NCBI RefSeq assembly: GCF_030052815.1
Contig: NC_079496.1
Location: forward strand, 81,953,652 to 82,017,651
Length of the DNA: 64,000 nt
Reading direction: 5' to 3'
From: Hevea brasiliensis
Taxonomy: Eukaryota > Streptophyta > Magnoliopsida > Malpighiales > Euphorbiaceae
The translations under genes and the position numbers were made by a program. Position 1 is the first letter of the stretch, and each line of letters opens with the position of its first letter. Below, one piece after another: positions 5,283 to 31,529 of this stretch. The notes below the pieces were generated by a model that saw only the letters and a program-made list of their open reading frames with translations, did no database searches and had not been told where the DNA came from.

Positions 5283-5295
5283 ACTCTTCCCCTCT
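5283..5295 (-). other. Polypurine tract of element D
   Basis: Element-strand AGAGGGGAAGAGT directly precedes the 3' LTR start TGTAACACCC. The same tract stands at 35144-35156 in F. Confidence 0.85.
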
Positions 5296-7363: not shown

Positions 7364-7369
7364 TGGAGC

Positions 7370-8665: not shown

Positions 8666-8699
8666 GTGTAGAGGAGAACGCACTCGATGACGCCCGGCA

Positions 8700-9905
8700 T
8701 CTTGCTCCTCCCGAGCTCTCAAGGCATAATTTCTCGGCGTGGTCCGTTATCCGGTCTCTCCGCCGCGGATGTAGGCCTCTGTGATGGTCCCATCACAACC
8801 GCTGCGATTTTCTACCTCTCGTGGTGCAGAGCAGTGTCTTTCTCGCTTGTGTTGGAGCAACAGTAGTAGTTCTGCGTGATGCCTTTAATCGATGCTCGTT
8901 GACCCACACCTCAAGCAGCACCGCCACTCTCAACACTCCTTTATGCCATTTCTCGGCGGTGTGGACACGCAGAAAATGCCGGGCTGGTCCTCGAACCCCA
9001 TCCTCGGAGAGCTGCCCACCGATGGTGTGGACTAACCTCTCCTAGGGATGAATCGTGGCTCGCCCCGAGATCGACTGCCCCGTGGTCGAGCTGAACTTTG
9101 TACAGAGGACCCTTAAACTTCTTCCCAAATCCAGTGGGTGGAACTAGACCGACTGGTCCCCTTCTCGCTCTCTCCTTCTCGGTCCGCTCATTGATTCTCA
9201 CTTTTTCAACCCTTATTGCGCCTTCCACTAGCTTGCTAAATTCTGTGATTCCTAAGGCGGTGAGTCAGTATCTTGATATTGTCATTCAGTCCCTCTTCAA
9301 ATCTCTTGCACCTTTCACTTCAAGTAGGGACTATTTCCTTCCATAGCGGCTTAACCGAACAAACTCCTTCTTATACTCTACCACCGATAACCTGTCTCGC
9401 TCAGTTAATGAATTCCTTATTCTCTCTTCCGTATACAAGCACTACATATTTCTTCTTGAACTCAGAGAGGAAGAAGTCCTGTTACGCCTTCGGCCGCACT
9501 TCATCGACACCGTGTCCCACCATCCGTAGGCATCGCCTTGTAACAAGGATATAGCAGCCTTCTAAGTTCTCGCCTGGGTGCAGTGAAGTTGTTTTAAGAC
9601 TCGCTGCTCGCTTCAACCAATTCTACCGCAATGCAGTCATCTTCTCTCTTGCCATAGAAGTCCACACTCCAAACTTCCTTAGCCTTTCCAGTGTGATTTA
9701 CTGTGGAGCCGTGGTGGTGGTGGTGGTGCCGGCATTACCCGCCATTTGTTCAAGAAGTCGGCCATTTGTTGGAACATGGCTCGTGGAGGCCGAGGTGCTC
9801 GCTTGAGCCGGTGGAGCAGATTCTCTCATGCCCCGGCCTCACCGCTGCAGGTGGAGCATGACTCTCCACTTCCTCCTCAATGGCTCTCTGAGATGAAGGG
9901 TCCAT
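8700..9905 (-). pseudogene. Gypsy gag with zinc knuckle (element D)
   Basis: Gag forms the virus-like particle around the RNA. The start codon is at 9905 by comparison with F (MDPSSQ at 55906). The capsid part runs through about 9230-9700 and the basic stretch and zinc-knuckle region through 8700-9000, all broken into short frames by many one-base losses. Only pieces such as AIRVEKVRIN (in the frame 8941-9228) are readable. The long + frames over this region (8821-9045, 9273-9554) are antisense shadows. A leader of about 127 bp separates the start from the LTR. Confidence 0.8.
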
Positions 9906-10015
9906 ATCCTATTCAAAATAAGAAAGATAAACAGATCTGCATTAGTGTCACCTCGTCTCTTACAAATGCAATACATGGTATGGACTCAATCTAGGCCCAG
10001 AAACGCCTAAACCGT

Positions 10016-10027
10016 GCTCTGATACCA
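10016..10027 (-). other. Primer-binding site of element D
   Basis: Element-strand TGGTATCAGAGC, complementary to the 3' end of plant initiator Met-tRNA, lies 5 nt inside the 5' LTR. It primes minus-strand DNA synthesis. The same site with the same spacing occurs in F at 56017-56028. Confidence 0.92.
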
Positions 10028-10032
10028 CTAAA

Positions 10033-13000
10033 TGTGACACCCCTTACCCGTACAAGATACCCGAGTAAGTAATGCCACCGTGTACCAAGCACACTCTAAT
10101 ATTCCTCAATTAATTTAGACAATGCTTTTGCATATAATTTATGAAATACAATTTATTTAAACCATTTATCAAAAGTATCATTCATTTAAGGTTCCGAAAA
10201 TTTTAAAGAAAATCCGGCGGAGTACCGGCTAAAAATGGAGATAACCGTTCTTCGGAACCTGTTGAAAACACTTCCAATATACAATTTCATTCATTCTCAA
10301 CTCCAATATCATCACAAAACTCAATATCAAGATATCAACAATTTTTCAATTTCAGGTCTCAACAACCTTTTCATTGCTCAAAACATCCCTTTCTCAGGGT
10401 TCTCATATATAAACAACCATTAAATACTCAAATTAATACCATACATGACCATAAATCTTTATTATTTACAATAAGCTCAAAATACATTACATAAATCCCA
10501 AATACATATGAGAAATAAAAATTTAATTACAAAATGACAAAATGACATCTAGTGTCCTACCAATGCACTGTAGGTGACGAGGTGACACGGACACTGAGCA
10601 GAACTGCCGGATGGACTCACCTAGTCTGTGGTCTACTGGGCTCGCGATCGGGATCTCCAGTACCTACGCGTGGCAAAAGCAACGCGCTAAGCAATAATGC
10701 TTAGTGGTGCAATAATATAATAAAAGAAAATAGCAAGAAAATAAATGTGTATAGAATGTGTATGCTTTCTTTGTTTGGTATTGATATATTCATTGTTTCA
10801 TTTACGTTGTTCACTTTTATTCATTTGGTTGCCCCAAGTAACCTACACTAGATGATCGGATCGATAACGGGTAACCGCACCGGGTACCTAGTACCTCGGG
10901 CCACACACCTTCGGTCACATACGTATCTCGGTGTGCAACATAACGCCTAACAAGTCAGAATAATATCCGGCACAAGGCCAAGTCTCAATACAAAGTCAGA
11001 ATGGCTAAAAGCCATGAAATCACAGAATGGCATTTTTGCCATGTGCAGTACTGCTAACTGAACCCTATTGGCATGCCAAACTATCCAAACCAATCTTGTT
11101 AGGTATACTAGGGCATTTGAACTCTTAAATTTGTCAATTTGTGAATTTCAACTTTTTTGGTGTCACTATTCATCATTGGTCAACAAAAATGTTGACTTTT
11201 AGAATAAAAATGTGTACATCAACTTTGGCACTCCCAACATACCACATTTGGTGTTTAAAACTTGTTGGCATTAAGTGTTTTTGCCATTCCAAAGTGCAAC
11301 TCAACATAAACAGATTTTTCAATTTTGGTGAGTCAACTTCACTGTTCCATTGGACACTGTTACTGTTGGAATTTGAGGAAATGTAAAACATGAAAGTTGT
11401 TCCTTCTTTTGTCTAGTTGAATTTCCTTTTTTCAATCACTCCATTTGGAGTTTTGTAGCTCCAGATATGGCTCAAAAACCCAAGCTGTCCGGATATGCAT
11501 TCTGCAGAAATTTACCATATCTACAGTGCATGAACAGTAACTTGAGTCACTTGGTTGAATGGGTTCTGGCCATAATTTGGGGTAGGTTCCTTCATGAAAA
11601 TTGTTTGTCTATGTCTTAACTTGTTTCTGTAAAAATTTCAGGCCAATTGACCAATTATACAGTGAGTTATGGCCAAATGAACAGTTACTGTTCATTTGGC
11701 AAATTCTGCAGAATTCAGTGCAGGGCATCCGGATTGTGGCTGAGTTTTGACCCTTTTGCTTTGGTCTTTTGGGCATGGTTTCTTCAGCAAAAATGTGCCA
11801 TTATAAGCCTAGTTTCATGTCCAATTGGCCAAACTTCAATTGGACTACCACTGCCCAAGTTATGGCAGTGCAAAGGGACTGAAATTTCAGTCCCTATGCT
11901 GCTGTCCATAGGGCAGCCTGCAACCTCACCTTGCCATAGTGTTTTTCAGTCCCATTTATGGTCAACACATCTAAAATGGTCACTAATTGACCATTACAAT
12001 GTGCCCTAACAATTTCCTAAGCCAAGTCACACTTTCACCTTTCCAAACCCTAATTTCCATATGAATTTTTACAACATGCTTTAATTAACTATCTCATTCC
12101 ATAATCACATGCATACATGGTTTAATCTTGATCTCTAGTCCACTTTAAGTCCATCAAAACACTCATTCCTTTTTATTCAATAGGGCTGCCGAAACCTAGG
12201 GCATGGATAGACATAGATTTCATTCATTTTAGTCACAAATTCCTACTTATTCCAAGTCTCTAACATAGAATTTAAAAAGCTTTAGATGTATATATGCACT
12301 AACCTTGTTAGGGCAGAATTTTCCCAAGCAATTCCTTCACTTTCTTGGCTTTTCTTGGCTGCCAAAGGCTTTAGCAAGGTGCTAGGGCAAGTTTTAGTGA
12401 AGCTAGGTTAGGATTTTATGGTGAGACAAGGTAGGAAATCAAGCTTGCTTGGTTGAGCTCCAATGGAGGGTGGAAGGGAAGGGTTCACGTTTTGGTGGAG
12501 AAGAAGGAGAAGAAGAGCAGCTGGTTTTTAATTCCTTTAGCCCATTTTTAGTCTCTTTTATTGGTTAACTAATTGGTTATTTTATTGTGATTGGAGGAAA
12601 TTTTTAAATGACATCATAATTTGTCATAATTTGCTTTTTATTTCATTTTTCTTTTCTTTTCTTTTCTACCACATTTCATTTTAATTTTTAGCAATATTTA
12701 TTCATATTTTGAGTCATAATAATTATTTACTTAACTGGACAAGTCGGCCAAAATTCACCTCTGAAGGCGAAATGACCAAAATGCCCTCCGTTTGGCTTAA
12801 CGGGTCAAAATTGGTATCTGATTGAAAATTTTTTCTAGGTATTTTCTTGGCATTCTAATGCCATGGGAACCTCAATTACCCTTCTCTGGAGTCCCAAAAA
12901 TTATTTTATAATTTTTCCCCCGGGTCTAGGGCTCCTCGTTGCGAGAACCGCAACTTCCCTCCGGTTACCCATCGCTAGGGCACCGGCTCGTTTAACTTGA

Positions 13001-13167
13001 TTGTATTTTATTTCTAAAATTTTTACTAAATTTTTCTTGTTAATATTTGAGTTAATTATGGTTCCTGACTTTAGTTTGAATATTTTTCCGGACATTCTAG
13101 CTGTCCGGACCGACATCGGTCACCGGAACAGTAGGATGTACGGAGTGGTTATCGGGAGGGTGTTACA
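10033..13167 (-). repeat. Element D 5' LTR
   Basis: 3,135 bp, near-identical partner of 2151-5282 and the likely promoter-bearing copy for D. Single-base differences from the left LTR are few. The main clusters of difference are at CAG/CTG positions (for example 11043-11061 against 3160-3178). The open frame 11647-12009 on + runs antisense through the palindrome cluster and has no recognisable domain. Ends at GGGTGTTACA followed by the TSD CAACA. Confidence 0.96.
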
Positions 13168-13172
13168 CAACA

Positions 13173-14341: not shown

Positions 14342-14553
14342 AATATTTTCACTCTCTTAGCCTGTCCAACAAAGGGTGATCTAGTCATTTTGCCCTGAAG
14401 GCAAGATTCACAAGTTGGAGTAGGCTCAGAGTCCAATAAGGATAGAATCCCCATTTTCTCCAATTTTGTAATCCTATCTTCTGCAACATGACATAACCTT
14501 AAGTGCCACAAACATATTTTGAACTTGAGTTGGTTTTCACCACGGCATTGCAT
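14332..14553 (-). pseudogene. GAG-pre/integrase zinc finger (element A)
   Basis: Encodes the HHCC zinc finger before the copia integrase: WHLRLCH gives the two His residues and CESCLQGK the two Cys. In other copia elements this block is separated from the gag zinc knuckle by a protease of about 150-200 residues. Here only about 30 codons separate them. The frame is offset from gag and from the integrase core. Confidence 0.85.
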
Positions 14554-14565
14554 TCATTTAGATTG

Positions 14566-15406
14566 CTATACTCTGGCCAGTGGAAACACTTTCTTACTGG
14601 CAATGGAAACACTTTCCTGTTGGCAGTGGAAACACTTTCCTTTGCCTTTATCAGCTTTAGTCTTCCTTTTCTGTTTAGCTATTTTCTTAGAAGGACCAGG
14701 AATCTGAGGTTTCTTTTTCTTATTGCCCTTCTTCTTGTTGGACTTTCCAGTAGAAGAAGATGCAACCAAAGCTACCTCTTTTCCTTTATTGCCTGGCATA
14801 TTCTTTTGGGCAATAACCAGCATGTTGAGTAAACCAGCTAAGGTGCATTCCTGTCTAGTCATATGGAAATTTTTCACAAAATTCCCAAAAGACTCAGGAA
14901 GGGACTGAAGGATCAAATCCGTTTGTAGTTGGAAATCCATGTTGAAGTCAAGATGTTCCAACTGCTCAATCAGTCGAATCATCTTGTGGACATGATCCCC
15001 AACATTCTGTCCCTCAGACATCCTCATACGGAATAGCTGTCTAGATATCTCATACCTAGCGTTCCATTTGTGCTCACCATACAACTCTTGTAGGTGAAGG
15101 AGGATCTCACTCGCACTCTGCATGTTCTCATGTTGCTTCTGTAACTCATTACTCATGGAAGCAAGCATGTAACACTTAGCTCTCATATCATGCTCCTTCC
15201 ACTTGTCCAAAGTTTCATGTTCCTCTTGTGTGGCCTCTGGAGGTAAGGGACCAGGAACATTTGAATATAGAACATATCCTATATCTTCAAGGTTCAGGAC
15301 AAGTTTCAAATTTCTTAGCCAATCAGACAGATTAGGTCCTGTCAACCTGTTTGTGATCAAGTATGCTTGCAAGGATATTGGATGGTGGTGGTTGTTTTGT
15401 GCTCAT
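14566..15406 (-). pseudogene. Copia gag with truncated zinc knuckle (element A)
   Basis: Copia Gag capsid (gag-polypeptide family). The true start is the ATG at 15406 (MSTKQPPPSN), but one extra A near 15352 shifts it from the main frame, which stays open over 268 residues to 14566. Visible blocks: LTGPNLSDWLRNLKLVL, DKWKEHDMRAKCYML, LHLQELYGEH and LILQSLPESF, then a Lys-rich tail. It ends GKGKCFHCQ, only the first half of a CCHC knuckle, followed by copies of the same short repeat and a stop. No protease follows. Confidence 0.88.
14576..14641 (-). repeat. Triplicated zinc-knuckle fragment (element A)
   Basis: Three tandem copies of a 22-25 bp unit whose core on the element strand is GGAAAGTGTTTCCA, itself an inverted repeat (GGAAA-GTG-TTTCC; the third copy begins AGAAA). 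The unit encodes the Cys-X2-Cys half of the zinc knuckle. It sits exactly where the rest of the knuckle and the protease are missing, and the same arrangement is present in B at 23791-23855. Confidence 0.88.
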
Positions 15407-17170
15407 TTTTATCAGAAAATTAACTGTAGAAAATAACCAGATTAATTAGTAAATGTATCATGTAATTAACCAAAATGATTATGGTCTTTTAATCAAATTG
15501 GTCCTCCCACTAACTTAGCGAATCCTACACTTCCAGAGTAGAAAACGGAAATCCTAGTTGGATGGATTTCTAGTGGGTGACTGAATTCTTATAATTCTAT
15601 TGATCATCCTCAGGTACATCCATTATTGGAATTACAATAAACTATAAGTGAGCAACTCCTTGCCATCACATCTCATGTGAGGTTCAATCCTTTACCTAGC
15701 CCCTAATGCTCAAAATCTCAGGTACATCCATTATTGACTTATCTTGCATTAGTTAAGTTGATCCCATTGAGTTAGTAATTATGCAAATAATTTTAATGTC
15801 CTCAGGTACATCCAATATTGGCCACCAAACCATTTACATATTTACAACATCTCATGCTTAACAATTATTCTTAAGAAAATCTCTTAAATTAATTGCATCT
15901 CATGCAACTATTTAAAATTTCTTAAAATAATTGCCCCAATGGAGGGCTTATGTTATAACTACTTTAATTATAGCATTTCCAACTTAATCATTTGTTTGGA
16001 AGATTTTATAGCCATCCTTATTACTATTAAGGTCTCACTTTGCACATTATCCATTTAGCATGCATATATCATATAATTGCATACATTCCCATACATCTCA
16101 TGCATTCATGGATAAGCAGTAAATATGATATGATCATGGACTTTCTAAGGGATTCAATTCTGAGCCACCAAGAATTGAATCAGGGCATTCCTAGGTGCAT
16201 TTCATTCATTCATTTTATAAGAGTTGCTGAAGGAGTACATAATCAACACTTGATATTGAATTCCTCCCACTGGTCCCACCAATGCTCTTGACCTCCTTGA
16301 ACTTCTTGCAATCCAATATTACATAGTAATCCTTGGCATACCAAGGCGAATTTACAAGAACTTAAATAAATGAAATTACAACCCAAAAATATTACAAACT
16401 TAATAATACATGCCCAAAATAAATTAAAATAAATTAATTAATTTACAATCCCAAAGAAACATAAAAGAAATAAATCCAATCACATTGGTCTTTTATAGTC
16501 CATGATCATCCATCATGCATATCACTATTTAACAATTAAATAAAACATACATACTTAAATTAAATTGAATATCTCATATTCAACTTAAAAATCCAGATTT
16601 GAATATGATTCAAATAAATTTAAAAATTCAGATTTGAATCTCATTCAAACAAATTTAAAAATTCAGATTTGAATCACATTCAAACAACTTCAAAAATTCA
16701 GATTTGAATCACATTCAAACATTTTTAAAAATCAGATTTGAATCACATTCAAATATTTTTAAAAATCAGATCTGAATTTTATTGAATCAATTTTAAAAAT
16801 CAGATTTAAATATGATTCAAACAACTTTAAAAATTCAGATTTGAATCACATTCAAACAACTTTTAAAATTCAGATTTGAATCACATTCAAACAATTTTTA
16901 AAATTCTGATTTGAATCATAATTTAATTGTGTGGTTAAAACTACTAATTAAACACTTTAATTAGTCAAAGAACAGGCCTTAGATCATACAACAATTGCAG
17001 AATTAAAAGCCAAACCTTGAACCACCCATGGAACCATTGTTGCCGCCACCAATGGTGGCTTCACCATGTGTGCCGCCACACCTCTTGATCCAACCAGCAA
17101 TGAATCAATCATCTCATGATCAAATCACACATTTAAATCATATAATCAACAATCTAAATGGCAAATATAG
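15407..17170 (-). other. Long untranslated leader of element A
   Basis: About 1.76 kb between primer site and gag, with no coding frame. It contains three copies of a roughly 20-bp motif (core GGATGTACCTGAG on the element strand; at about 15611, 15719 and 15801), a perfect 11-bp-arm hairpin (GATTCAATTCT...AGAATTGAATC, 16151-16181) and an AT-rich tandem array (16591-16925). Packaging, dimerisation or translation control are possible roles; none is shown. Confidence 0.8.
16591..16925 (-). repeat. 35-36 bp tandem repeat array in copia leader (A)
   Basis: About nine to ten degenerate units with period near 35 bp. Each carries TTTGAAT-GTG-ATTCAAA or a variant, a 7-bp inverted repeat with a 3-nt loop. 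The corresponding array in B is at 21513-21850. No CRISPR-like spacers: units abut and vary by substitution. Confidence 0.85.
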
Positions 17171-17184
17171 TGGCTCTGATACCA
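17171..17184 (-). other. Primer-binding site of element A
   Basis: Element-strand TGGTATCAGAGCCA, complementary to the initiator Met-tRNA 3' end, 2 nt from the LTR. Confidence 0.93.
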
Positions 17185-17186
17185 AT

Positions 17187-19288
17187 TGAAGGAACGGAAG
17201 CGTGAAAAACACAAGATTATACCATTTAATTCAAAAAAAATTCGCCTAGGGTCACATGCACCATGCAAGATTTATTTTTATCTATTTGATTTCAATGATA
17301 AACAATATATTAAAACTCTTTTAATATGTTTTTGGATCTGTATTTGCCATTTAAGATTTTAAAATTAATCAGATTAATTTTAGAACCCTAGATTAAATCA
17401 AGAACGATTACACTAACCTCTTGATGCACTGCAGCGTGTCTGCGCCTTTGAGATTCGTCTTCAGGACACCAGATGTTGTCCCTCTAGCTTGTCCACACCA
17501 AGAACACCTATGGAAGCCCTTGAACAGCCTCTAAAGCTTTTTCTATTAATTAGAAATTCAAGTTCTGCCTTTTAAGAGATTAGAGATGTAAACAGGACAC
17601 TAGAAACAATTTCTAGTGTTCTTAATTCAAGAGATTGATGGCTAATCTCTTTGAATTGATGAGAGATGAAGAGAAATAGCTGGAGAGACTCAAAGTGGCG
17701 TGACAAATGAGAGGAGAGGCTGCTGGTTATTTTTTCTTTTCATAACCACACTTAAATAGCTAGGTTAACACATTAAACCCTAGCCACATGTCACCTTTTG
17801 ATTAGCTCTAGGTTTAAGTGACCCAATCACATTGTGCCAATTGTCAAACCTATATTTAATCTTGATTTTAATCATGTTACATGATTAAAAAACATTTGGC
17901 AAGCTTATGTGTAATCCCATGTGTCACCATCTCATGGTGCCACGTGTCACTTAATGAAATGACCAAAATGCCCCTGTGTCCTAATTTTGAGTTCTTAACC
18001 CAAAATAATTATTTTCTTCTTCTAATTAATTTATATCAAATATAAATTAATTAATCAATCTCTATTAATTAATTTCTCATCAATTAAATTTATATTTAAA
18101 CACTTTAAATATAAATTTAATTTATACTACACATCCAATAATCTAGATTTGGTTTCAAGTCATACTAGGGACTTTGCAATTTAATTGCAAACCAAACCTA
18201 TTTAATTAATCAATTAAACTCTTTAATTAATTAATTAAATCATATTTAAATAGGTGATAACTTGTGTATGTGTGTGACTTACTAGGCTCATCACTAATTG
18301 GCAATGAGACATGATATCAACTCTTAATATCATCAGAACTCTTTCTTACCATAAATGATTTCTCTAAATCATTTTATGAACCTCATAAACCATGGTTAAC
18401 ACCTAGCATAGCATGCCATGGCCACCCAATTAGTAATAAGATTTACCTTAAATGAACCTATAATCATATGTTACCATGCACTAGAATCTCTCTGTTACAA
18501 AATCCCAACTCAATCTGGAGTCATGGTTTATGTCAAACTCCATTTGCTATGAATATTATGTTCTCTTTTAATTCCAGTTCTTGATTAAAAGATTTTTCTA
18601 ATCAGAAACTATTTTATGAATAAATCTATACATCTGGCCAGAACTTGAAACATCAAGAACAATTAAATGAACATAGGATTTTATCTCTATTTACTTAGAG
18701 GAACAGATTCCATCTTGATCAACACCTACCTCCATATATAACTAGCAGGAGCCAACACATGCCCATATACCCATACATAGTACAAGTATGAAAGCAGTAT
18801 CAAACTCAAACTACCTATATACAAGATAACTATGCTATCTCAGGTCTAAAGATTATATGCACTGATATGATTTATGACAAAACATTGACAAGAGTAAACT
18901 CCATGTGCTTGTCATAAGTGTCACTGGTTCGGCCTACTTATCATTTATAAGTGCCTATCATGTTTGTTATATGGCATGAGACTCACCATTCCATCTTATT
19001 TATATCTCATATAAACAACTTGGGAACAAACATGAATACAATCTTTCTGGATAAGTCATGTCCTTATTATGAAGTATCCTCGATTGTGAACCTATTTATG
19101 ATACTTTGTGCTAGAAATATTGTCACTCATATTCTTAACAACTTAGAATAATATTTCTAACAAAATATCAATGGACCTTTTCTATTACACATAAATATAT
19201 TATGTAAACGGAAAAGTGGAAATGCCTTTTAATAAAATTATGTACAAGATATATACTAAATGATATGCTCTAGGGCATACTACTAACA
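17187..19288 (-). repeat. Element A 5' LTR
   Basis: 2,102 bp, TGAAGGAACGG...TACTAACA on the plus strand. No gene inside. It holds the shared GGGGCATTTTGGTCATTT motif (element strand, 17957-17974) and a hairpin ACACTAGAAA-CAA-TTTCTAGTGT (17597-17619) in the transcribed 3' part. It abuts B's LTR head to head at 19288/19289. Confidence 0.94.
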
Positions 19289-20678
19289 TTAAGTTGTTAA
19301 GAATATGAGTGACAATATTTCTAGCACGAAGTATCATAAATAGGTTCAAAATCGAGGATACTTCATAATAAGGACATGACTTATCCAGAAAGATTGTATT
19401 CATGTTTATTCCCAAGTTATTTATATGAGATATAAATAAGATGGAATGGTGAGTCTCATGCCATATAAGAAACATGATAGGCACTTATAAATGATAAGTA
19501 GGCCGAACCAGTGACACTTATGACAAGCACATGGAGTTTACTCTTGTCAATGTTTTGTCATAAATCATATCAGTGCATATAATCTTTAGACCTGAGATAG
19601 CACAGTAATCTTGTATATAGGTAGTTTGAGTTTGATACTGCTTTCATACTTGTACTATGTATGGGTATATGGGCATGTGTTGGCTCCTACTAGTTATATA
19701 TAGAGGTAGGTGTTGATCAAGATGAAATCTGTTCCTCTAAGTAAATAGAGATAAAATCCTATGTTCATTTAATTGTTCTTGATGTTTCAAGTTCCTGGCC
19801 AGGACAGATAGATTTATTCAGAAAAGAGTTTCTGATGAGAAAATCTTTTAATCAAGAACTGGAATTAAAAGAGAACATAATATTCATAGCAAATGGAGTT
19901 TGACATAAACCATGACTCCAACTTGAGTTGGGATTTTGTAACAGAGAGATTCTAGTGCATGGTAATATATGATTATAGGTTCATTTAAGGTAAACCTTAT
20001 TACTAATTGGGTGGCCATGGCATGCTATGCTAGGTGTTAACCATGGTCTATGAGATTCATAAAATGATTTAGAGAAATCATTTATGGTAAGAAAGAGTTC
20101 TGATGATATTAAGAGTTGATATCATTTCTCATTGCCAATTAGTGATGAGCCTAGTAAGTCACACACATACACAAGTTATCACCTATTTAAACATGATTTA
20201 ATTAATTAATTAAAGAGTTTAATTGATTAATTAAATAGGTTTGGTTTGCAATTAGATTGCAAAGTCCCTAGCATGACTTGAAACCAAATCTAAATTATTG
20301 GATGTATAATATAAGTTAAATTTATATTTAAAGTGTTTAAATATGAATTTAATTAATGAGAAATTAATTAATAGAGATTAATTAATTAATTTATATTTGA
20401 TATAAATTAATTAGAAGAAGAAAAATAATTATTTTGGGTTCAGAACTCAAAATTAAGACACAAGGGCATTTTGGTCATTCCACAGTGTGACATGTGGCAC
20501 CATGAGATGGTGACACATGGGATTACACATAAGCTTGCCAAATGTTTTTTTAATCATGTAAGATGATTAAAATCAAGATTAAATATAGGTTTGACACTTG
20601 GCACAATGTGATTGGGTCACTTAAACCTAGAGCTAATCAAAGGGTGACATGTGGCAAGGGTTTAATGTGTTAACCTAG

Positions 20679-20687
20679 CTATTTAAG
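20679..20687 (+). promoter_or_regulatory. Possible TATA box of copia LTR
   Basis: CTATTTAAG lies about 210 bp downstream of the shared GGGCATTTTGGTCATT motif and about 560 bp before the LTR end. A CT-rich run (about 20750-20775) follows. The same order exists in the 3' LTR near 28070. Position and sequence suit a core promoter, but no start site can be proved from sequence. Confidence 0.4.
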
Positions 20688-20781
20688 TGTTGTTATGAGA
20701 AAATAAAACACAACCAGCAGCCACACTCCTTTGTCACGCCACTTTGAGGGTTTTCTTCTCTTCTTCTTCATCTCTCATCAA

Positions 20782-20840
20782 TTCAAAGAGATTAGCCATC
20801 AATCTCTTGAATTAAGAACACTAGAAATTGTTTCTAGTGT
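20782..20840 (+). repeat. Paired hairpins near 3' end of copia LTR
   Basis: Hairpin 1: TTCAAAGAGATT...AATCTCTTGAA (one bulge). Hairpin 2: ACACTAGAAA-TTG-TTTCTAGTGT, perfect 10-bp arms, 3-nt loop. Both recur in A's 5' LTR (17597-17665) and B's 3' LTR (about 28170-28229). Confidence 0.8.
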
Positions 20841-21249
20841 CCTGTTTACATCTTTAATCTCTTAAAAGGCAGAACTTGATTTTCTAATTAATAGAAAAAG
20901 CTTTAGAAGCTATTCAAGGGCTGCCATAGGTGTTCTTGGTGTGGACAAGCTAGAGAGACAACATTTGGTGTCCTGAAGACAAATCTCAAAGGCGCGACAC
21001 TGCGATTGCATCAAGAGGTTAGTGTAATCGTTCTTGATTTAATCTAGGGTTCTAAAATTAATCTGATTAATTTTAAAATCTCAAATGGCAAATACAGATC
21101 CAAAAACATATTAAAAGAGTTTTAATATGTTGTTTATCATTGAAATTAAATAGATAAAAATAAATCTTGCATGATGCATGTGACCCTAGGTGAAAATTTT
21201 TGAATTCAATGGTATAAACTTGTGTTTTTCACGCTTCCGTTCCTTCAAT

Positions 21250-21263
21250 TGGTATCAGAGCCA
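21250..21263 (+). other. Primer-binding site of element B
   Basis: TGGTATCAGAGCCA, 2 nt after the LTR end TCCTTCA. Matches the initiator Met-tRNA 3' end. Confidence 0.94.
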
Positions 21264-23035
21264 CTATATTTGCCATTTAGATTGATGTTTATATTATTTA
21301 ATTGTGTGTTTGATCATGAGATCAAGAGTTTATTGCTGGTTGCAAAGTCAAAGTGGCGGCACAAATGATGAACACCATGGTGTGCATGGTTGATGCATCA
21401 CAATGGTGTGCAAAGGTAAATGGATGGTGAATGTGCAATTGTTGTATGATTTAAGATCCATTTTATGTCTAATTAAATTGTTTAATTAGAATTTTTATCA
21501 CACAATTAAATTATGATTCAAATCAGAATTTTAAAAATTGTTTGAATGTGATTCAAATCTGAATTTTTGAAGTTGTTTGAATGTGATTCAAATCTGAATT
21601 TTTAAAGTTGTTTGAATCATATTTAAATCTGATTTTTTAAAATTGATTGAATAAAATTCAGATCTGATTTTTTAAAAAATGTTTGAATGTGATTCAAATC
21701 TGATTTTTTAAAAAATGTTTGAATGTGATTCAAATCTGAATTTTTGAAGTTGTTTGAATGTGATTCAAATCTGAATTTTTAAATTTGTTTGAATGAGATT
21801 CAAATCTGAATTTTTAAATTTATTTGAATCATATTCAAATCTGGATTTTTAAGTTGAATATGAGATATTCAATTTAATTTAAGTATGTATGTTTTATTTA
21901 ATTGTTAAATAGTGATATGCATGATGGATGATCATGGACTATAAAAGACCAATGTGATTGGATTTATTTCTTTTATGTTTCTTTGGGATTGTAAATTAAT
22001 TAATTTATTTTAATTTATTTTGGGCATGTATTATTAAGTTTGTAATAATATTTTGGGTTGTAATTTCATTTATTTAAGTTCTTGTAAATTCACCTTGGTA
22101 TGCCAAGGATTACTATGTAATATTGGATTGCAAGAAGTTCAAGGAGGTCAAGAGCATTGGTGGGACCAGTGGGAGGAATTCAAGATCAAGTGTTGATTAT
22201 GTACTCCTTCAGCAACTCTTGTAAAATGAATGAATGAAATGCACCTAGGAATGCCCTGATTCAATTCTTGGTGGCTCAGAATTGAATCCCTTAGAAAGTC
22301 CATGATCATACCATATTTACTGCTTATCCATGAATGCATGAGATGTATGGGAATGTATGCAATTATATGATATATATGCATGCTAAATGGATAATGTGCA
22401 AAGTGAGACCTTAATAGTAATTAGGATGGCTATAAAATCTTCCAAACAAATGATTAAGTTGGAAATGCTATAATTAAAGTAATTATAACATAAGCCCTCC
22501 ATTGGGGCAATTATTTTAAGAAATTTTAAATAGTTGCATGAGATGCAATTAATTTAAGAGATTTTCTTAAGAATAATTGTTAAGCATGAGATGTTGTAAA
22601 TATGTAAATGGTTTGGTGGCCAATATTGGATGTACCTGAGGACATTAAAATTATTTGCATAATTACTGGCTCAATGGGATCAACTTAACTAATGCAAGAT
22701 AAGTCAATAATGGATGTACCTGAGATTTTGAGCATTAGGGGCTAGGTAAAGGATTGAACCTCACATGAGATGTGATGGGCAAGGAGTTGCTCACTTATTG
22801 TTTATTGTAATTCCAATAATGGATGTACCTGAGGATGATCAATAGAATTATAAGAATTCAATTACCCACTAGAAATCCATCCAACTAGGATTTTCATTTT
22901 CTACTTTGGAAGTGTAGGATTCGCTAAGTTAGTGGGAGGACCAATTTGATTAAAAGACCATAATCATTTTGGTTAATTACATGATACATTTACTAATTAA
23001 TCTGGTTATTTTCTGCGATTAATTTTACGATAAAA
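21264..23035 (+). other. Long untranslated leader of element B
   Basis: About 1.77 kb with no gene. In order: the 35-bp array (21513-21850), the 11-bp-arm hairpin GATTCAATTCT-TGGTGGCTC-AGAATTGAATC (22258-22288), and three copies of a motif with core GGATGTACCTGAG (22620-22641, 22705-22724, 22813-22834). The open frame 22148-22381 is antisense. Confidence 0.82.
21513..21850 (+). repeat. 35-36 bp tandem repeat array in copia leader (B)
   Basis: Nine to ten units built on TTGTTTGAATGTGATTCAAA followed by a T/A-rich part. Each unit can fold into TTTGAAT-GTG-ATTCAAA. Counterpart of the A array at 16591-16925. Confidence 0.86.
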
Positions 23036-23510
23036 ATGAGCACAAAACAACCACTACCATCCAATATCCTTGCAAGCATACTTGATCACAATAGGTTGAC
23101 AGGACCTAATCATGCGATTGGCTAAGAAATTTGAAACTTGTCTGAACCTTGAACATATAGGATATGTTCTAGATTCAAATGTTCTGGTCCCTTACCTCCA
23201 GAGGCCACACAAGAGGAACATGAAACTTTGGACAAGTGGAAGGAGCATGATATGAGAGCTAAGTGTTACATGCTTGCTTCCATGAGTAATGAGTTCTGAA
23301 GCAACATGAGAACATGCAGTGCGAGTGAGATCCTCCTTCACCTACAAGAGTTGTATGGTGAGCACAGCAGAATGCTAGGTATGAGATATCTAGGCGGTAT
23401 TCGCATGAGGATGTCCGAGGGACGAGAATGTTGGGGATCATGTCCACAAGATGATTCGGTGATTGAGCGGTTGGAACATCTTGACTTCAACATGGATTTC
23501 CAACTATAGA
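23036..23510 (+). pseudogene. Copia gag N-terminal part (element B)
   Basis: Start ATG at 23036 (MSTKQPLPSN). The capsid region matches A's gag but is shredded by indels around 23100-23480. The readable piece at 23306-23509 shows ASEILLHLQELYGEH and EHLDFNMDFQL. Several differences from A are CAG or CTG turned into CGG-like sequence, for example GAGCAGTTGG in A against GAGCGGTTGG in B at about 23465. Not translatable as a whole. Confidence 0.83.
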
Positions 23511-23541
23511 CGGATTTGATCCTTGATCCTTCACAGGTCTT

Positions 23542-24210
23542 TTGGGAAATTTTGTGACAAATTTCCATATGACTAAACAGGAATGCACCTTAGCTGGTTT
23601 ACTCAACATGCTGGTTATTGCCCAAAACAATATGCCAGGCAATAAAGGAAAAGAGGTAGCTTTGGTTGCATCTTCTTCTGCTGGAAAGTCCAACAAGAAG
23701 AAGGGCAATAAGAAAAAGAAACTTCAGATTCCTGGTCCTTCCAAGAAAATAGCTAAACAGAAAGGGAAGACCAAAGCTGACAAAGGCAAAGGAAAGTGTT
23801 TCCACTGCCAAAGGAAAGTGTTTCCATTGCCAGTAAGAAAGTGTTTCCACTGGCTAGAGTATAGCAATCTAAAAGAATACAATGCCATGGTGAAAACCAA
23901 CTCAAGTTCAAAATATATTTGGCACTTAAGGTTATGTCATGTTGCAGAAGATAGGATTGCAAAATTGGAGAAAATGGGGATTCTATCCTCATTGGGCTCT
24001 GAGCCTACTCCAACTTGTGAATCTTGCTTTCAAGGCAAAATGACTAGATCACCCTTTGTTGGACAAGGGCTAAGAGCTGAAAATATTTTGGAACTAATAC
24101 ATAGTGATTTATGTGGTCCATTTAAAGAAATGGCTAGAGGGGGTTTTCATTATTTTATTACCTTTACTGATGATAAATTAAGGTTTGGGTATTTGTATTT
24201 GATGAAGTAG
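23542..24210 (+). pseudogene. Copia gag C-terminus fused to GAG-pre and integrase start, protease missing (element B)
   Basis: One open frame of 222 residues running from the end of the gag capsid (GNFVTNFHMTKQECTLAGL) through a Lys-rich tail to the half zinc knuckle GKCFHCQ. It then crosses the triplicated short repeat directly into GAG-pre (IWHLRLCHVAEDRI, CESCFQGK) and the integrase start (LIHSDLCGPF, with the first catalytic Asp). A normal copia element would carry an aspartic protease (DSGA-type active site) here; none is present. The frame stops at 24210 after a 46-bp deletion relative to A (between TTGATGA and AGTAGAAAATC). Confidence 0.9.
23791..23855 (+). repeat. Triplicated zinc-knuckle fragment (element B)
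   Basis: Three tandem copies of a unit with core GGAAAGTGTTTCCA (first base A in the third copy), as in A at 14576-14641. B lacks one base relative to A (CCAAAGG against CCAACAGG), which keeps gag and GAG-pre in one frame here. Confidence 0.88.
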
Positions 24211-25916
24211 AAAATCAAACAGGAAAAAGTATTAAAGCTCTTCGATCAGATCGTGGAGGCGAATATTTGAGTACTGAATTTGATGAATACTTAAGAGAGC
24301 ATGGCATTGTTTCTCAGCTGACTCCTCCAGGAACGCCACAGCTGAATGGTGTATCTGAAAGGAGAAATCGTACCCTATTGGATATGGTACGTAGTATGAT
24401 GAGCTATACTGATATGTCAATCTTCTTTTGGGGATTTGCATTAGAATCAGCTTTGTATATTCTGAATAGGATTCCATCAAAATCAGTTTTTTCCACACCT
24501 TATGAGATATGGCATGGAAGAAAACCAAGTCTTAAGCATGTTAAGATTTGGGGTTGTCCAGCTTATATCAAAAAGCTGAACACTGATAAATTGGAGACCA
24601 GATCAGAAAAGGGTCGATTTGTTGGATATCCAAAAGATAGTTTTGGATATTATTTTTATTTGCCTACTTCACAAAAGGTTGTGATAAGTAGAGATGCCAC
24701 ATTTCTTGAACAACAGTTTGTTCAAGAAGGAGGCAAAGGAAGGCAAATAGAGTTAGAATTGGAGAATTTTGACCAACCAACATATCAGATGGATATAGAT
24801 CCATCTAGTCAACCTATACCCGTTGATGAAACATCTACAGCTGTTCCTCGTAGAACAACCAGGGTATCTCGCCCACCAGTGAGATATGGTTTTCTTCATG
24901 AAGAAGAACAAGAGTTGTCTACTCATGAAGAAGTAGATCATGGAGATGATCCACTTACCTATGAAGAAGCTATATCAGATATAGACTCTTCAAAATGGAT
25001 TGATGCTATGAAATCCGAGATTGATTCCATGTATAAGAATCAAGTTTGGGATCTTGTTGACCCACCTGAAGGTATTGTACCTATAGGGAACAAATGGGTT
25101 TTCAAGAAGAAAATTGGTTCTGATGGAAAGGTAGAGACCTATAAGGCAAGGCTAGTAGCGAAAGGGTTTCGCCAAAGGCAAGGAATCGACTATGAGGAGA
25201 CTTTCTCACCTGTTGCCTTGCTTAAATCAATTAGGATTTTACTAGCAATAGCTGCATACTATGATTATGAGATTTAGCAGATGGATGTCAAAACAGCTTT
25301 TCTCAATGGATACATTGAAGAAAACATTTTCATGGAACAACCTAGGGGATTTGAATCCCAAGATGGTTCCAAGGTATGCAAGCTAAAGCGATCCATTTAT
25401 GGGTTGAAACAAGCTTCGAGGAGTTGGAACATCCGTTTTGATGAAGCCATTAAATCCTTTGGTTTTATAAAAAATGAGGATGAGCCATGTGTATATAAGA
25501 AGGTTAGTGACAGTGCTATCACTTTCCTTGTCTTACATGTGGATGACATACTGTTGATAGGTAATGACACAGGTATGTTGACAACTATAAATGTATGGTT
25601 GTCAAATACATTTTCCATGAAAGACTTAGGGGAGGCAACCTATATTCTTGGGATTCGCATCTATAGAGATAGAGCGAAAAGAATAATTGGTTTATCCCAA
25701 AGTTTATACTTGGAAAAGGTGTTAAAGAGGTTTAACATGCTTGATTCCAAGAGAGGATTGTTACCAGTGAGACATGGTATCCATCTTTCTAAAGAGATGT
25801 CTCCAAAGACACCTGAAGAAAGAGATAAGATGGCCAGGATTCCATATGCTTCGGCTATTGGAAGTTTAATGTATGCAATGTTGTGTACTAGGCCGGATAT
25901 CGCATATCTTTATTAG
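24204..25916 (+). pseudogene. Copia integrase core and reverse transcriptase (element B)
   Basis: Nearly continuous frame of about 570 codons. Integrase: SDRGGEY (second Asp) and SERRNR (Glu), IWGCPAY and RFVGYPKDSFGYYFY. RT: VFKKKIGSDG, QRQGIDYEETFSP, DVKTAFLNGYIEENI, YGLKQASRSW and the catalytic box as HVDDILLIGND (usual YVDD). One nonsense codon, TAG at 25278-25280 in place of A's TGG (YEIWQMDVK), splits it. The first integrase Asp lies upstream in a different frame because of the 46-bp deletion. Longest copia coding stretch in the window. Confidence 0.92.
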
Positions 25917-26531: not shown

Positions 26532-28638
26532 TGTTAGTAGTATGCCCTAGAGCATATCATTTAGTATATATCTTGTACATATTTTTATTAATAAAGGCAT
26601 TTCCACTTTTCCGTTTACATAATATATTTATGTGTAATAGAAAAGGTCCATTGATATTTTGTTAGAAATATTATTCTTAAGTTGTTAAGAATATGAGTGA
26701 CAATATTTCTAACACGAAGTATCATAAATAGGTTCACAATCGAGGATACTTCATAATAAGGACATGACTTATCCAGAAAGATTGTATTCATGTTTGTTCC
26801 CAAGTTATTTATATGAGATATAAATAAGATGGAATGGTGAGTCTCATGCCATATAACAAACATGATAGGCACTTATAAATGATAAGTAGGCCGAACCAGT
26901 GACACTTATGACAAGCACATGGAGTTTACTCTTGTCAATATTTTGTCATAAATCATATCAGTGCATATAATCTTTAGACTTGAGATAGCACAGTTATCTT
27001 GTATATAGGTAGTTTGAGTTTGATACTGCTTTCATACTTGTACTGTGTATGGGTATATGGGCATGTGTTGGCTCCTACTAGTTATATATAGAGGTAGGTG
27101 TTGATCAAGATGAAATCTGTTCCTCTAAGTAAATAGAGATAAAATCCTATGTTCATTTAATTGTTCTTGATGTTTCAAGTTCCTGGCCAGGACAGATAGA
27201 TTTATTCGAGAAAAGAGTTTACGATGAGAAAATCTTTTAATCAAGAACTGGAATTAAAAGAGAACATAATATTCATAGCAAATGGAGTTTGACATAAACC
27301 ATGACTCCAGCTTGAGTTGGGATTTTGTAACAGAGAGATTCTAGTGCATGGTAACATATGATTATAGGTTCATTTAAGGTAAACCTTATTACTAATTGGG
27401 TGGCCATGGCATGCTATGCTAGGTGTTAACCATGGTCTATGAGATTCATAAAATGATTTAGAGAAATCATTTATGGTAAGAAAGAGTTCTGATGATATTA
27501 AGAGTTGATATCATTTCTCATTGCCAATTAGTGATGAGCCTAGTAAGTCACACACATACACAAGTTATCACCTATTTAAACATGATTTAATTAATTAATT
27601 AAAGAGTTTAATTGATTAATTAAATAGGTTTGGTTTGCAATTAGATTGCAAAGTCCCTAGCATGACTTGAAACCAAATCTAGATTATTGGATGTATAATA
27701 TAAGTTAAATTTATATTTAAAGTGTTTAAATATGAATTTAATTAATGAGAAATTAATTAATAGAGATTAATTAATTAATTTATATTTGATATAAATTAAT
27801 TAGAAGAAGAAAAATAATTATTTTGGGTTCAGAACTCAAAATTAAGACACAAGGGCATTTTGGTCATTCCACAGTGTGACATGTGGCACCATGAGATGGT
27901 GACACATGGGATTACACATAAGCTTGCCAAATGTTTTTTTAATCATGTAAGATGATTAAAATCAAGATTAAATATAGGTTTGACACTTGGCACAATGTGA
28001 TTGGGTCACTTAAACCTAGAGCTAATCAAAGGGTGACATGTGGCAAGGGTTTAATGTGTTAACCTAGCTATTTAAGTGTTGTTATGAGAAAATAAAACAC
28101 AACCAGCAGCCACACTCCTTTGTCACGCTACTTTGAGGGTTTTCTTCTCTTCTTCTTTATCTCTTATCAATTCAAAGAGATTAGCCATCAATCTCTTGAA
28201 TTAAGAACACTAGAAATTGTTTCTAGTGTCCTGTTTACATCTTTAATCTCTTAAAAGGCAGAACTTGATTTTCTAATTAATAGAAAAAGCTTTAGAAGCT
28301 ATTCAAGGGCTGCTATAGGTGTTCCCGGTGTGGACAAGCTAGAGGGACAACATTTGGTGTCCTGAAGACAAATCTCAAAGGTGTAGACACGCTGCAGTGC
28401 ATCAAGAGGTTAGTGTAATCGTTCTTGATTTAATCTAGGGTTCTAAAATTAATCTGATTAATTTTAAAATCTTAAATGGTAAATATAGATCCAAAAACAT
28501 ATTAAAAGAGTTTTAATATGTTGTTTATCATTGAAATCAAATAGATAAAAATAAATCTTGCATGATGCATGTGACCCTAGGTGAAAATTTTTGAATTCAA
28601 TGGTATAAACTTGTGTTTTTCACGCTTCCGTTCCTTCA
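26532..28638 (+). repeat. Element B 3' LTR
   Basis: 2,107 bp, TGTTAGTAG...TCCTTCA. Complete reference copy for this copia family in the window. Shared motif at 27853-27868, hairpin at 28207-28229. The flanking ATTAG at 28639-28643 is the expected right TSD; its partner lies outside the window. Confidence 0.95.
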
Positions 28639-29480
28639 ATTAGGTCCTATCAACCTATTGCGATCAAGTATGCTTGCAAGGATATTGGATGGTGGTGGTT
28701 GTTCTGTGCTCATTATTATCAGAAAATTAACTGCAGAAAATAACTAGATTAATTAGTAAATGTATTAAGTAATTAACCAAAATGATTATGGTCTTTTAAT
28801 CAAATTGGTCATCCCACTAACTTAGAGAATCCTACACTTCCAAAGTAGGAAACGGAAATCCTAGTTGGATAAATTTATAGTGGGTGATTGAATTCTTATA
28901 ATTCTATTGATCATCCTCGGGTACATCCATTATTGGAATTACAAAAAACTATAAGTGAGCAGCTCCTTACCCATCACATCTCATGTGAGGTTCAATCCTT
29001 TACCTAGCCCCTAATGCTCAAAATATCAGGTACATCCATTATTGACTTATCTTGCATCAGTTAAGTTGATCCCATTGAGTCAGTAATTATGCAAATAATT
29101 TTAATGTCCTCAGGTACATCCAATATTGGCCACCAAACCATTTACATATTTACAACATCTCTTGCTTAACAATTATTCTTAAGAAAATCTCTTAAATTAA
29201 TTGCATCTTATGCAACTATTTAAAATTTCTTAAAATAATTGTCCCAATGGAGGGCCTATGTTGTAATTACTTTAATTATAGCATTTCCAACTTAATCATT
29301 TGTTTGGAAGATTTTATGGTCATCCTAATTACTATTAAGTCTCACTTTGCACATTATCCATTTAGCATGCATATATCATATACTTGCATACATTCCCATA
29401 TATCTCATGCATTCATGGATAAGCAGTAAATATGGTATGATCATGGACTTTCTAAGGGATTCAATTCTGAGCCACCAAGA
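28639..29480 (-). pseudogene. Inverted gag start and leader of element C
   Basis: On the minus strand the sequence reads leader, then gag start (ATG near 28711, MSTEQPPPSN-like) up to about codon 24, where B inserted. The leader part carries the three GGATGTACCTGAG motifs (about 28918, 29030, 29112) and ends inside the 11-bp-arm hairpin at GATTCAATTCT-GAGCCACCA (29458-29477). It contains no other gene. Confidence 0.85.
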
Positions 29481-29943
29481 AAATCAAACAGGAAAGAGTA
29501 TTAAAGCTCTTCGATCAGATCGTGGAGGTGCATATTTGAGTACTGAATTTGATAAATACTTAAGAGAGCATGGCATTGTTTCCCAGCTGACTCCTCCAGG
29601 AACGCCACAGCTGAATGGTGTATCTAAAATGAGAAATCGTTCCCTATTGGATATGGTACATAGTATGATGTGCTATACTGATATGCCAATCTCCTTTTGG
29701 GGATTTGCGTTAGAATCAACTTTGTATATTCTGAATAGGATTCCATCAAAATCAGTTTCTTCCACACCTTATGAGATAAGGCATGGAAGAAAACCAAGTC
29801 TTAAGCATGTTAAGATTTGGGGTTGTCCAGCTTATGTAACAAAGCTGAACACTGATAAATTAGAAACCAGATCAGAAAAAGGTCGATTTGTTGGATATCC
29901 AAAAGATAGTTTTGGATATTATTTTTATTTGCCTACTTCATAA
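29481..29943 (+). pseudogene. Copia integrase fragment with lost catalytic Glu (element C)
   Basis: Begins inside the integrase core at ENQTGKSIKAL and is fused in frame to about 45 codons of leader sequence from 29347. SDRGGAY keeps the second catalytic Asp, but the block that should read SERRNR reads SKMRNR, so the catalytic Glu is Lys. IWGCPAYV and RFVGYPKDSFGYYFYLPTS follow. A TAA at 29941-29943 replaces the CAA (Gln) codon found in A and B. Inactive by truncation, by active-site loss and by nonsense. Confidence 0.9.
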
Positions 29944-29949
29944 AAGGTT

Positions 29950-31378
29950 GTGATAAGTAGAGATGTCACATTTCTTGAACAACAGTTTGTTCAAGAAGGA
30001 GGCAAAGGAAGGCAAATAGAATTAGAATTGGAGAATTCTAACCAACCAACAGATCAGATGGATATAGATCCATCTAGTCAACCTACACTCGTTGATGAAA
30101 CATCAACAGCTGTTCCTCGTAGAACAACCAGGATATCTCACCCACTAGGGAGATATGGTTTTCTTCATGAGGAAGAATAAGAGTTGTCTACTCATGAAGA
30201 AGTAGATCATGGAGATGATCCACTCACCTATAAAGAAGCTATATCAGATATAGACTCTTCAAAATGGTTTGATGCTATGAAATCCGAGATTGATTCCATG
30301 TATAAGAATCAAGTTTGGGATCTTGTTGACCCACCTGAAGGTATTGTACCTATAGGGAACAAATGGGTTTTCAAAAAGAAAATTGGTTCTAATGGAAAGG
30401 TAGAGACCTATAAGGCAAGGCTAATAGCGAAAGGGTTTCGCCAAAGGCAAGGAATCGACTATGAGGAGACTTTCTCCCCTGTTGCCATGCTTAAATCAAT
30501 TAGGATTCTATTAGCAATAGCTGCATACTATGATTATGAGATTAGGCAGATGGATGTCAAAACAGCTTTTCTCAATGGATATATTGAAGAAAACATTTTC
30601 ATGGAACAACCTAGGGGTTTTGAATCCCAAGATGGTTCCAAGGTATGCAAGCTAAAACGATCCATTTATGGGTTGAAACAAGCTTCGAGGAGTTGGAACA
30701 TTTGTTTTGATGAAGCCCTTAAATCCTTTAGTTTTATCAAAAATGAGGATGAGCCATGTGTATACAAGAAGGTTCGTGACAGTACTATCACTTTCCTTGT
30801 CTTATATGTGGATGGCATACTGTTGATGGGTAATGACATAGGTATGTTGACAACTGTAAAGGTATGGTTGTCAAATACATTCTCCATGAACGACTTAGGG
30901 GAGGCCACCTATATTCTTGGGATTCAAATCTATAAAGATAGAGCGAAAAGAATAATTGGTTTATCCCAAAGTCTATTATTGGAAAAGGTGTTAAAGAGGT
31001 TTAACATGCTTGATTCCAAGAGAGGATTGTTACCAGTGAGACATGGTATCCACCTTTCTAAAGAGATGCCTCTAAAGACACCTGAAGAAAGAGATAAGAT
31101 AGCCAGGATTCCATATACTTCGGCTATTGGAAGTTTAATGTATGCAATGTTGTGTACTAGGTCGGATATCGCATATGCGGTTAGTTTGACTAGCAGGTAT
31201 CAATCCAATCCAGGTTTGGAACATTGGATAGCTGTCAAGAATATCCTTAAGTACTTGAGAAGAACTAAGGATTTATTCTTGATATATGGAGGTGGAGACT
31301 TGCAATTGGATGGTTATACTGATTCTGATTTCCAATCAGATATCAATGATAGAAAGTCTACCTTTGGATTTGTGTTCA
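29950..31378 (+). pseudogene. Copia linker, reverse transcriptase and RNase H start (element C)
   Basis: Open from 29950 except for TAA at 30178-30180 (CAA in B). RT blocks: WVFKKKIGSNG, RQGIDYEETFSPVAML, DVKTAFLNGYIEENI and YGLKQASRSW. The catalytic box reads YVDGILLMGND, so the second catalytic Asp is Gly. The RNase H start (DGYTDSDFQSDINDRKST) follows and is cut by E's LTR at 31379. This is a decayed copy whose frame nevertheless stayed long. Confidence 0.92.
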
Positions 31379-31529
31379 TGTAACACCCCAAACCTCCGAG
31401 TTATGAATAGTACCATTTTTGGTCTGTGACTAATACTATTCAAAGATACCTTGAGGACCAAAAATAAATAGAAATTAATTGAGATAGACACAATAAAAAT
31501 TCTAGTGAACAAAAAAAAAAAACTAAGGA

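What the first reader, a model, noticed from the sequence alone, without database searches (positions are those of the whole stretch)
14554..24000. Copia lineage that lost its protease and was copied in that state
In A (14554-14645) and B (23790-23930) the half zinc knuckle (GKCFHC) is followed within about 30 codons by the GAG-pre block (WHLRLCH). The rest of the knuckle and the whole aspartic protease are absent. Both copies carry the same three-fold repeat of a 22-25 bp unit at the breakpoint. A and B are separate insertions in opposite orientation, so the deletion predates both. Known copia elements need protease to mature Gag-Pol, so this family was probably mobilised with protease supplied by another element, or matured without it. 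In B, gag, GAG-pre and the integrase start even form one frame.
Basis: partly seen in the sequence, partly recalled or inferred. Interest (0 to 1): 0.78.

Follow-up and report, generated by a model that had tools for sequence, protein, structure and literature searches.

The report
Jumping gene thriving without its protease
In the rubber-tree genome a copia-type jumping gene that lost its protease gene is still present at thousands of places, most likely because it used the protease made by intact members of the same family; this is an unusually clear case of a known kind of partnership between complete and incomplete elements.

Summary
A and B both lack the second half of the zinc knuckle and the whole protease and share a 22-23 bp repeat at the breakpoint. 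They are separate integrations with their own 5-bp target duplications (TTAAG, ATTAG). In the window's own genome (Hevea brasiliensis by protein records) the deletion junction has 5,846 sites. Of 20 sampled copies, 13 have comparable LTR pairs, 1.44-3.14% diverged. Protease-bearing members with the same linker and leader lie in the same genome: leader-to-linker spacing is bimodal, 26 short and 19 long of 46, and 128 of the 150 best knuckle-protease matches have no stop. The 9,142 intact-knuckle sites overstate this partner, since only 12 of 32 checked have the exact linker. So this is a high-copy, protease-less sub-family beside a protease-bearing one; supply of protease in trans is the simplest reading but was not shown.

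The parts
14566..15372 (-). A: gag ORF ending in the half knuckle and array
   Evidence: PF14223 E 5.3e-26; ORF
14573..14641 (-). A: three-unit 23-bp array at the deletion
   Evidence: TRF score 101; alignment
14565..14570 (-). A: protease deletion point (between 14567 and 14568)
14347..14544 (-). A: GAG-pre-integrase block
   Evidence: tblastn of P0130, P0025
13163..14341 (-). A: integrase, SH3 and start of RT, open
   Evidence: rve, SH3_retrovirus, RVT_2
1400..2158 (-). A: rest of RT, separated from the first part by an inserted element
   Evidence: RVT_2 E 6.1e-47; self-BLAST
17187..19288 (-). A: 5' LTR (about 2.1 kb), inserted in B's 5' LTR
19289..19293 (.). A: target site duplication TTAAG (partner copy lies left of the window)
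1..821 (-). A: 3' LTR, first 821 bp; continues left of the window
2150..13167 (.). Another LTR element (LTRs 2150-5282 and 10032-13167) nested in A
19289..21247 (+). B: 5' LTR, whose first ~150 bp lie on the far side of A
21250..21261 (+). B: primer-binding site, start of the leader pattern counted genome-wide
23542..24210 (+). B: gag C-terminus, array, linker, GAG-pre and integrase start in one frame
   Evidence: PF13976 E 3.6e-12, no PF22936, no zf-CCHC
23787..23852 (+). B: three-unit 22-23 bp array
   Evidence: TRF score 102
23860..23865 (+). B: protease deletion point (between 23862 and 23863)
24267..25277 (+). B: integrase end, SH3 and RT start
   Evidence: SH3_retrovirus, RVT_2
25281..25916 (+). 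B: RT core
   Evidence: RVT_2 E 8.1e-38
26532..28638 (+). B: 3' LTR
28639..28643 (.). B: target site duplication ATTAG
28639..31379 (.). C: rearranged copy of the same family into which B inserted (gag/leader on minus to 29481, INT-RT on plus from 29478)

Best explanation
A and B belong to a protease-less sub-family of a Ty1/Copia family in Hevea brasiliensis. Shown: against a protease-bearing stretch of the same family the copies lack about 30 bp of the zinc knuckle and 462 bp (154 codons) holding the protease, both multiples of three; a 23-bp piece of the remaining knuckle is present in 1 to 5 tandem units; the deletion junction has 5,846 sites, and sampled copies are LTR elements, many with 5-bp target duplications; protease-bearing members with the same leader and linker and open protease frames lie in the same genome. 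Inferred: one ancestral loss, then copying in that state; transcripts of the protease-less copies enter virus-like particles built with Gag and Gag-Pol of the family, protease from co-expressed protease-bearing members matures the particle in trans, and family RT and integrase copy and insert the protease-less RNA. They are thus semi-autonomous passengers of their own family.
For: Sites within 3 mismatches, reversed-pattern controls 0: deletion junction 2,919 + 2,927, linker 15,555, intact knuckle 9,142, leader 15,780. Of 69 listed exact linkers on contig 1, 46 have an exact leader upstream: 26 at 2,536-2,697 bp, 19 at 2,998-3,083 bp, 1 at 4,641 bp; the gap fits the lost segment. Of the best 40 junction matches scored (1,893 first-look candidates), 39 span the whole 525-bp query at 98-100% and one spans 8-525. 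20 copies sampled as every fifth of the 100 listed exact junctions, all on contig 1: 13 LTR pairs at 1.44-3.14% (median 1.81%), 8 of 13 with identical 5-bp TSDs; at 3.89e-9 per site per year (PMC7353026, figure legend passage) about 1.9-4.0 My. Protease-bearing side: the 150 scored matches to one open knuckle-protease stretch (itself included; best of 22,851 first-look candidates) are 95-100% identical, 128 of 150 without stops. Copies whose Gag-Pol frame is broken at the array or linker are 10 of the 20 sampled and 7 of 7 nearest relatives of B, which fits enzymes supplied in trans. Shared variants in gag and the first INT-RT piece are no more synonymous than singletons (p 1.0 and 0.86), as expected if these were not needed in cis.
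Against: No transcript, particle or protease activity was observed; trans supply is inferred. The intact-knuckle count includes sister sub-families: of 32 listed exact knuckles 12 have the exact linker and 12 the exact leader, 7 having both. The RT piece does show depletion of amino-acid changes among shared variants (18 syn/12 non against 30/74 singletons, p 0.0025), and A-B differences in INT-RT are richer in synonymous changes than random placement (14 of 30, P 0.026), though A-C and B-C are not (P 0.18, 0.23); this fits own RT being used, or recombination with protease-bearing members. One of the two protease-bearing stretches read out has a broken protease frame. The 150 matches were ranked by likeness to an open query and so favour open copies.
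Confidence: 0.75

Rival explanations
1. Protease independence: the in-frame protease-less Gag-Pol (arrays of 1 or 4 units) works unprocessed or is cut by a host protease, so the sub-family spreads on its own.
For: The protease loss (462 bp), the knuckle loss (about 30 bp by inspection) and arrays of 1 or 4 units keep the Gag-Pol frame; 10 of 20 sampled copies are open and in frame across the junction. A pattern for four or more units has 3,003 sites. RT shared variants look constrained.
Against: The other 10 of 20 sampled copies and 7 of 7 nearest relatives of B are out of frame. A protease-bearing partner is present in number, so independence is not needed. Half the zinc knuckle is also gone.
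Confidence: 0.07
2. The deletion spread mainly by recombination (template switching in particles or gene conversion between copies) into many backgrounds, rather than by descent of one lineage.
For: A-B divergence is mosaic: 0.5-1.5% per 200 bp at 21651-22850, about 25% at 21251-21450, 3-9.5% over most of gag and pol; LTR patches disagree (A5-A3 5.6% at columns 601-800, B5-B3 7.6% at 1801-2000); array length does not follow the copy tree.
Against: Protease-less copies (22) form one clade against 17 of the 20 older protease-bearing loci, three being dropped for missing columns (UFBoot 93 as read after mid-point rooting); the closest protease-bearing sub-family could not be placed. TSDs show ordinary insertions in this state.
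Confidence: 0.14
3. A and B share the deletion only because one is a duplicate of the other or was converted by it.
For: A and B form a 12-kb near-palindrome (13168-25215, 93.8%).
Against: Distinct TSDs with A inserted in B's LTR; A-B divergence of 3.0% and 5.0% in the two 200-bp windows at the junction lies within the range of neighbouring gag and pol; the junction has 5,846 sites.
Confidence: 0.01
4. The protease segment was lost as an intron in a spliced RNA that was then reverse-transcribed.
For: Plant Ty1/Copia elements make a spliced short GAG RNA (PMC8892269, passages).
Against: Against the one open protease-bearing stretch read, the lost segment does not begin GT or end AG and its ends cannot be slid (inspection of letters). 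The knuckle loss is a second event.
Confidence: 0.03

Closest known systems
BARE2 of barley (gag disrupted, presumably using BARE1 Gag), as described in PMC9744471 (passages)
   Same: Copia sub-family with one essential function lost, other genes kept, helped by a relative
   Different: There Gag is lost; here Gag, INT and RT stay and protease plus half of the knuckle are lost
Tos17 of rice (no gag; PMC3977881, abstract and passages)
   Same: Copia element that moves without one gene
   [quoted passage not shown] here the junction has thousands of sites
[quoted passage not shown]
   Different: Angela's non-autonomous members have a wholly degenerate coding part; here the fixed loss is the protease and half knuckle
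RLG_Sabrina_SA of wheat (semi-autonomous, GAG plus protease only; PMC9744471, passages)
   Same: Partial gene set, high copy number
   Different: Gypsy, and the reverse choice: protease kept, full polyprotein lost

Membership tests
Ty1/Copia LTR retrotransposons | Integrase ahead of reverse transcriptase, GAG-pre block, SH3 domain | tested here: met
   Pfam order in A and B ORFs
Ty1/Copia LTR retrotransposons | LTRs with TG...CA ends, tRNA primer site, 5-bp TSD | tested here: met
   (tRNA-Met assignment of the primer site is recalled)
Ty1/Copia LTR retrotransposons | Aspartic protease between gag and GAG-pre | tested here: not met
   protease-bearing member for contrast
Ty1/Copia LTR retrotransposons | Complete CCHC knuckle in gag | tested here: not met
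   no zf-CCHC
Non-autonomous (semi-autonomous) derivative of a Copia family | Many insertions with TSDs in the defective state | tested here: met
   A and B; 8 of 13 LTR pairs among 20 sampled copies
Non-autonomous (semi-autonomous) derivative of a Copia family | Partner with the missing gene in the same genome | tested here: met
Non-autonomous (semi-autonomous) derivative of a Copia family | Partner shares LTR ends, leader and time of activity | tested here: inconclusive
   7 of 12 exact knuckles with an exact linker also have the exact leader; LTRs and ages of partners not read
Non-autonomous (semi-autonomous) derivative of a Copia family | Missing function supplied in trans | not testable with these tools
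   needs protein evidence
TRIM / LARD / TR-GAG | No coding capacity, or gag only | tested here: not met
   gag, INT and RT all present

The most novel reading that the evidence does not exclude
The protease-less Gag-Pol of in-frame copies is a working protein: an LTR retrotransposon sub-family replicates without any aspartic protease of its own, with the 23-bp array acting as a length switch between fused Gag-Pol (1 or 4 units) and Gag only (2, 3, 5 units).
Probability: 0.06. Interest if true: 0.88.

Novelty: new variant of a known kind. Interest (0 to 1): 0.52.

Why it matters
The incomplete Copia elements described in the papers seen here lack Gag or have a wholly degenerate coding part. A sub-family missing only the protease and half of the nucleic-acid-binding knuckle, in numbers comparable to its protease-bearing relatives, is a natural deletion experiment. 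It asks how much protease a particle needs, whether protease can be a shared good within a family, and whether a full knuckle is needed for packaging. The variable 23-bp array gives natural in-frame and out-of-frame sets for the same question.

Tried and rejected
Viral contigs, prokaryote genome contigs, plasmids and complete E. coli genomes gave no match at the sensitivity used (records of this genome may be left out there). Segmental duplication or A-B conversion as the cause of sharing was rejected on TSDs and copy number. A spliced-RNA origin was rejected on the ends of the lost segment. Purifying selection over the whole protease-less lineage was sought and not found for gag and the first INT-RT piece, but appeared in the RT piece. 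Stops shared by several copies were considered as proof of trans-mobilisation; the commonest (4 of 22, CAA to TAA) falls in copies that do not cluster, so they were not used. The unit count by motif misses mutated units; lengths were used instead. Genome-wide counts of exactly 3-unit and 1-unit arrays were not obtained. My statement that a protease-only loss was not met in print rests on the searches and on passages of PMC7353026 (no occurrence of 'protease' in its main text); most subscription papers are not in that library.
Full report
Setting. The window lies in a 1.88-Gb genome at G000:C4:81953652-82017651. Protein records with contig lengths equal to contigs of this genome (100,867,429; 101,662,298; 91,651,135) are named Hevea brasiliensis, so the genome is taken as rubber tree.

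Observation. A (minus strand) and B (plus strand) carry gag up to the first half of the zinc knuckle, then three head-to-tail units of 22-23 bp, then a linker and the GAG-pre block, integrase and RT. tblastn of 12 relatives, eight with part or all of the protease, finds no protease match in A or B at E < 0.01. In 47 of 266 fetched relatives that have both a full knuckle and GAG-pre, the distance is 172-192 aa in 45, 147 in one and 64 in one; in B it is about 42 codons.

Separate insertions. Window and flank read, from outside in: C, another copy of the family; B, inserted into gag of C with ATTAG on both sides; A, inserted into B's 5' LTR with TTAAG on both sides; and another LTR element (2150-13167) inserted in A. 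The 12-kb near-palindrome 13168-25215 is therefore a by-product of nesting in opposite orientation. In 200-bp windows A and B differ by 3-9.5% over most of gag and pol (0.5% at 24851-25050), by 0.5-1.5% at 21651-22850 and by about 25% at 21251-21450. Their own LTR pairs differ by 2.2% (817 bp of A) and 1.78% (B), both including patches that look converted. The two windows at the junction differ by 3.0% and 5.0%, so recent conversion there is unlikely and the shared deletion predates both insertions.

How common. The deletion-junction pattern has 5,846 sites. A 525-bp query over B's junction had 1,893 first-look candidates, of which the best 40 were scored; 39 match the whole query at 98-100% identity and one matches 8-525. 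I took every fifth of the 100 listed exact sites, all on contig 1 (20 copies, L029-L048). In 13 of 20 both LTRs could be compared: 1.44-3.14%, median 1.81%. Eight of these 13 have identical 5-bp target duplications, one matches at 4 of 5, one does not match, and three could not be judged. With 3.89e-9 per site per year, the rate used for Hevea in PMC7353026 (passages seen), this is about 1.9-4.0 million years.

The partner. The intact-knuckle pattern has 9,142 sites, the linker 15,555 and the leader at the primer site 15,780. These are sites within 3 mismatches, not complete elements. Of the 100 listed exact linkers, 20 have an exact deletion junction 32-33 bp upstream, 19 an exact knuckle 525-533 bp upstream and 61 neither exactly. 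Of 30 exact junctions in the range checked, 20 have an exact leader upstream; of 32 exact intact knuckles, 12 have the exact leader and 12 the exact linker, 7 both. The intact-knuckle count therefore includes sister sub-families. Independently of knuckle letters, leader-to-linker spacing falls into two groups, 26 short and 19 long, with one outlier, in 46 of 69 linkers that have an exact leader; the gap between groups fits the lost segment, and I assign the short group to the protease-less state by length alone. Two protease-bearing stretches were read: one has an open knuckle-protease-linker frame, the other is broken. B's 44-nt linker differs from these by 2 and 3 positions and from the 20 older protease-bearing loci by 8-14. 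With the open stretch as a protein query, the 150 scored of 22,851 candidates are 95-100% identical and 128 of 150 have no stop (the query's own locus is among them, and the ranking favours open copies). Pfam names PF22936 and zf-CCHC in it.

How the loss happened. By inspection of protease-bearing loci, the knuckle lost about 30 bp between short direct repeats. The protease segment measures 462 bp against the open stretch and has no GT-AG ends (inspection). Both sizes are multiples of three. A 23-bp piece of the remaining knuckle is present in 1, 2, 3, 4 or 5 units. Among the 20 sampled copies ten have 4 units (one of them a base short), five have 3 (one irregular), two have 2, two have 1 and one has 5. 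The two 1-unit and eight of the ten 4-unit copies are open and in frame from gag to GAG-pre; the other ten copies are not. A pattern for four or more units has 3,003 sites. B has three units and is in frame only through a length change that its seven nearest fetched relatives do not have. P0002, from a 592-bp contig labelled Escherichia coli, reads as a four-unit copy (by inspection). Whether one unit or several is ancestral is not settled; the two 1-unit copies group together but are not basal in the tree.

Selection. In the 20 copies (18, 20 and 18 usable per piece), variants shared by two or more copies are as often amino-acid-changing or nonsense as singletons in gag (16 syn/26 other against 42/69, p 1.0) and in the first INT-RT piece (14/37 against 48/139, p 0.86), but not in the RT piece (18/12 against 30/74, p 0.0025). 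A-B differences in INT-RT are 14 synonymous of 30, against 8.8 expected by random placement (P 0.026); A-C and B-C show no significant excess (P 0.18 and 0.23). The copy tree has long tips and short inner branches. I read this as weak or no constraint on gag and integrase in the protease-less lineage, with RT either used in cis or exchanged by recombination.

Reading. The simplest account is a semi-autonomous sub-family that gave up protease and relies on protease-bearing members of its own family in shared particles. What is shown is structure, number of sites, separate insertion and coexistence; co-packaging and trans maturation are inferred. Wheat Angela, barley BARE2 and rice Tos17 are the closest described cases (PMC9744471 and PMC3977881, passages); none loses only the protease in the passages seen.

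Noticed in passing
28639-31379: C is rearranged: gag/leader on the minus strand joined head-on to INT-RT on the plus strand at 29478-29481, as would follow from a central deletion of two head-to-head copies or from self-integration.
   Followed up: partly
16585-16918 and 21514-21852: A 35-bp tandem array of about 9.6 copies lies in the leader of both A and B; next to it (21251-21450) A and B differ by about 25% although 21651-22850 differs by 0.5-1.5%.
   Followed up: partly
18489-18688 (A 5' LTR, alignment columns 601-800): A's two LTRs differ by 5.6% here while A's 3' LTR and B differ by 0.5-1.0%, a likely conversion patch; B's LTR pair has a similar patch at columns 1801-2000 (7.6%).
   Followed up: partly
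P0002: A 592-bp contig filed under Escherichia coli encodes gag of this plant family with the array, so it is probably plant contamination; the cluster has 8 member sequences.
   Followed up: no
P0007, P0030, P0147, P0150 and eight others: 12 of 266 fetched relatives end exactly at the third knuckle ligand, as if a stop or splice site sat at the next codon; three of them (P0007, P0030, P0150) are named Hevea. Some may simply be cut by contig ends.
   Followed up: partly
32007-59171: A further element with 3.1-kb LTRs (32007-35145, 56034-59171) encloses other repeats; a chromodomain-type integrase end at 35155-35805 and a Ty3-type gag at 50998-51624 lie in this stretch.
   Followed up: no
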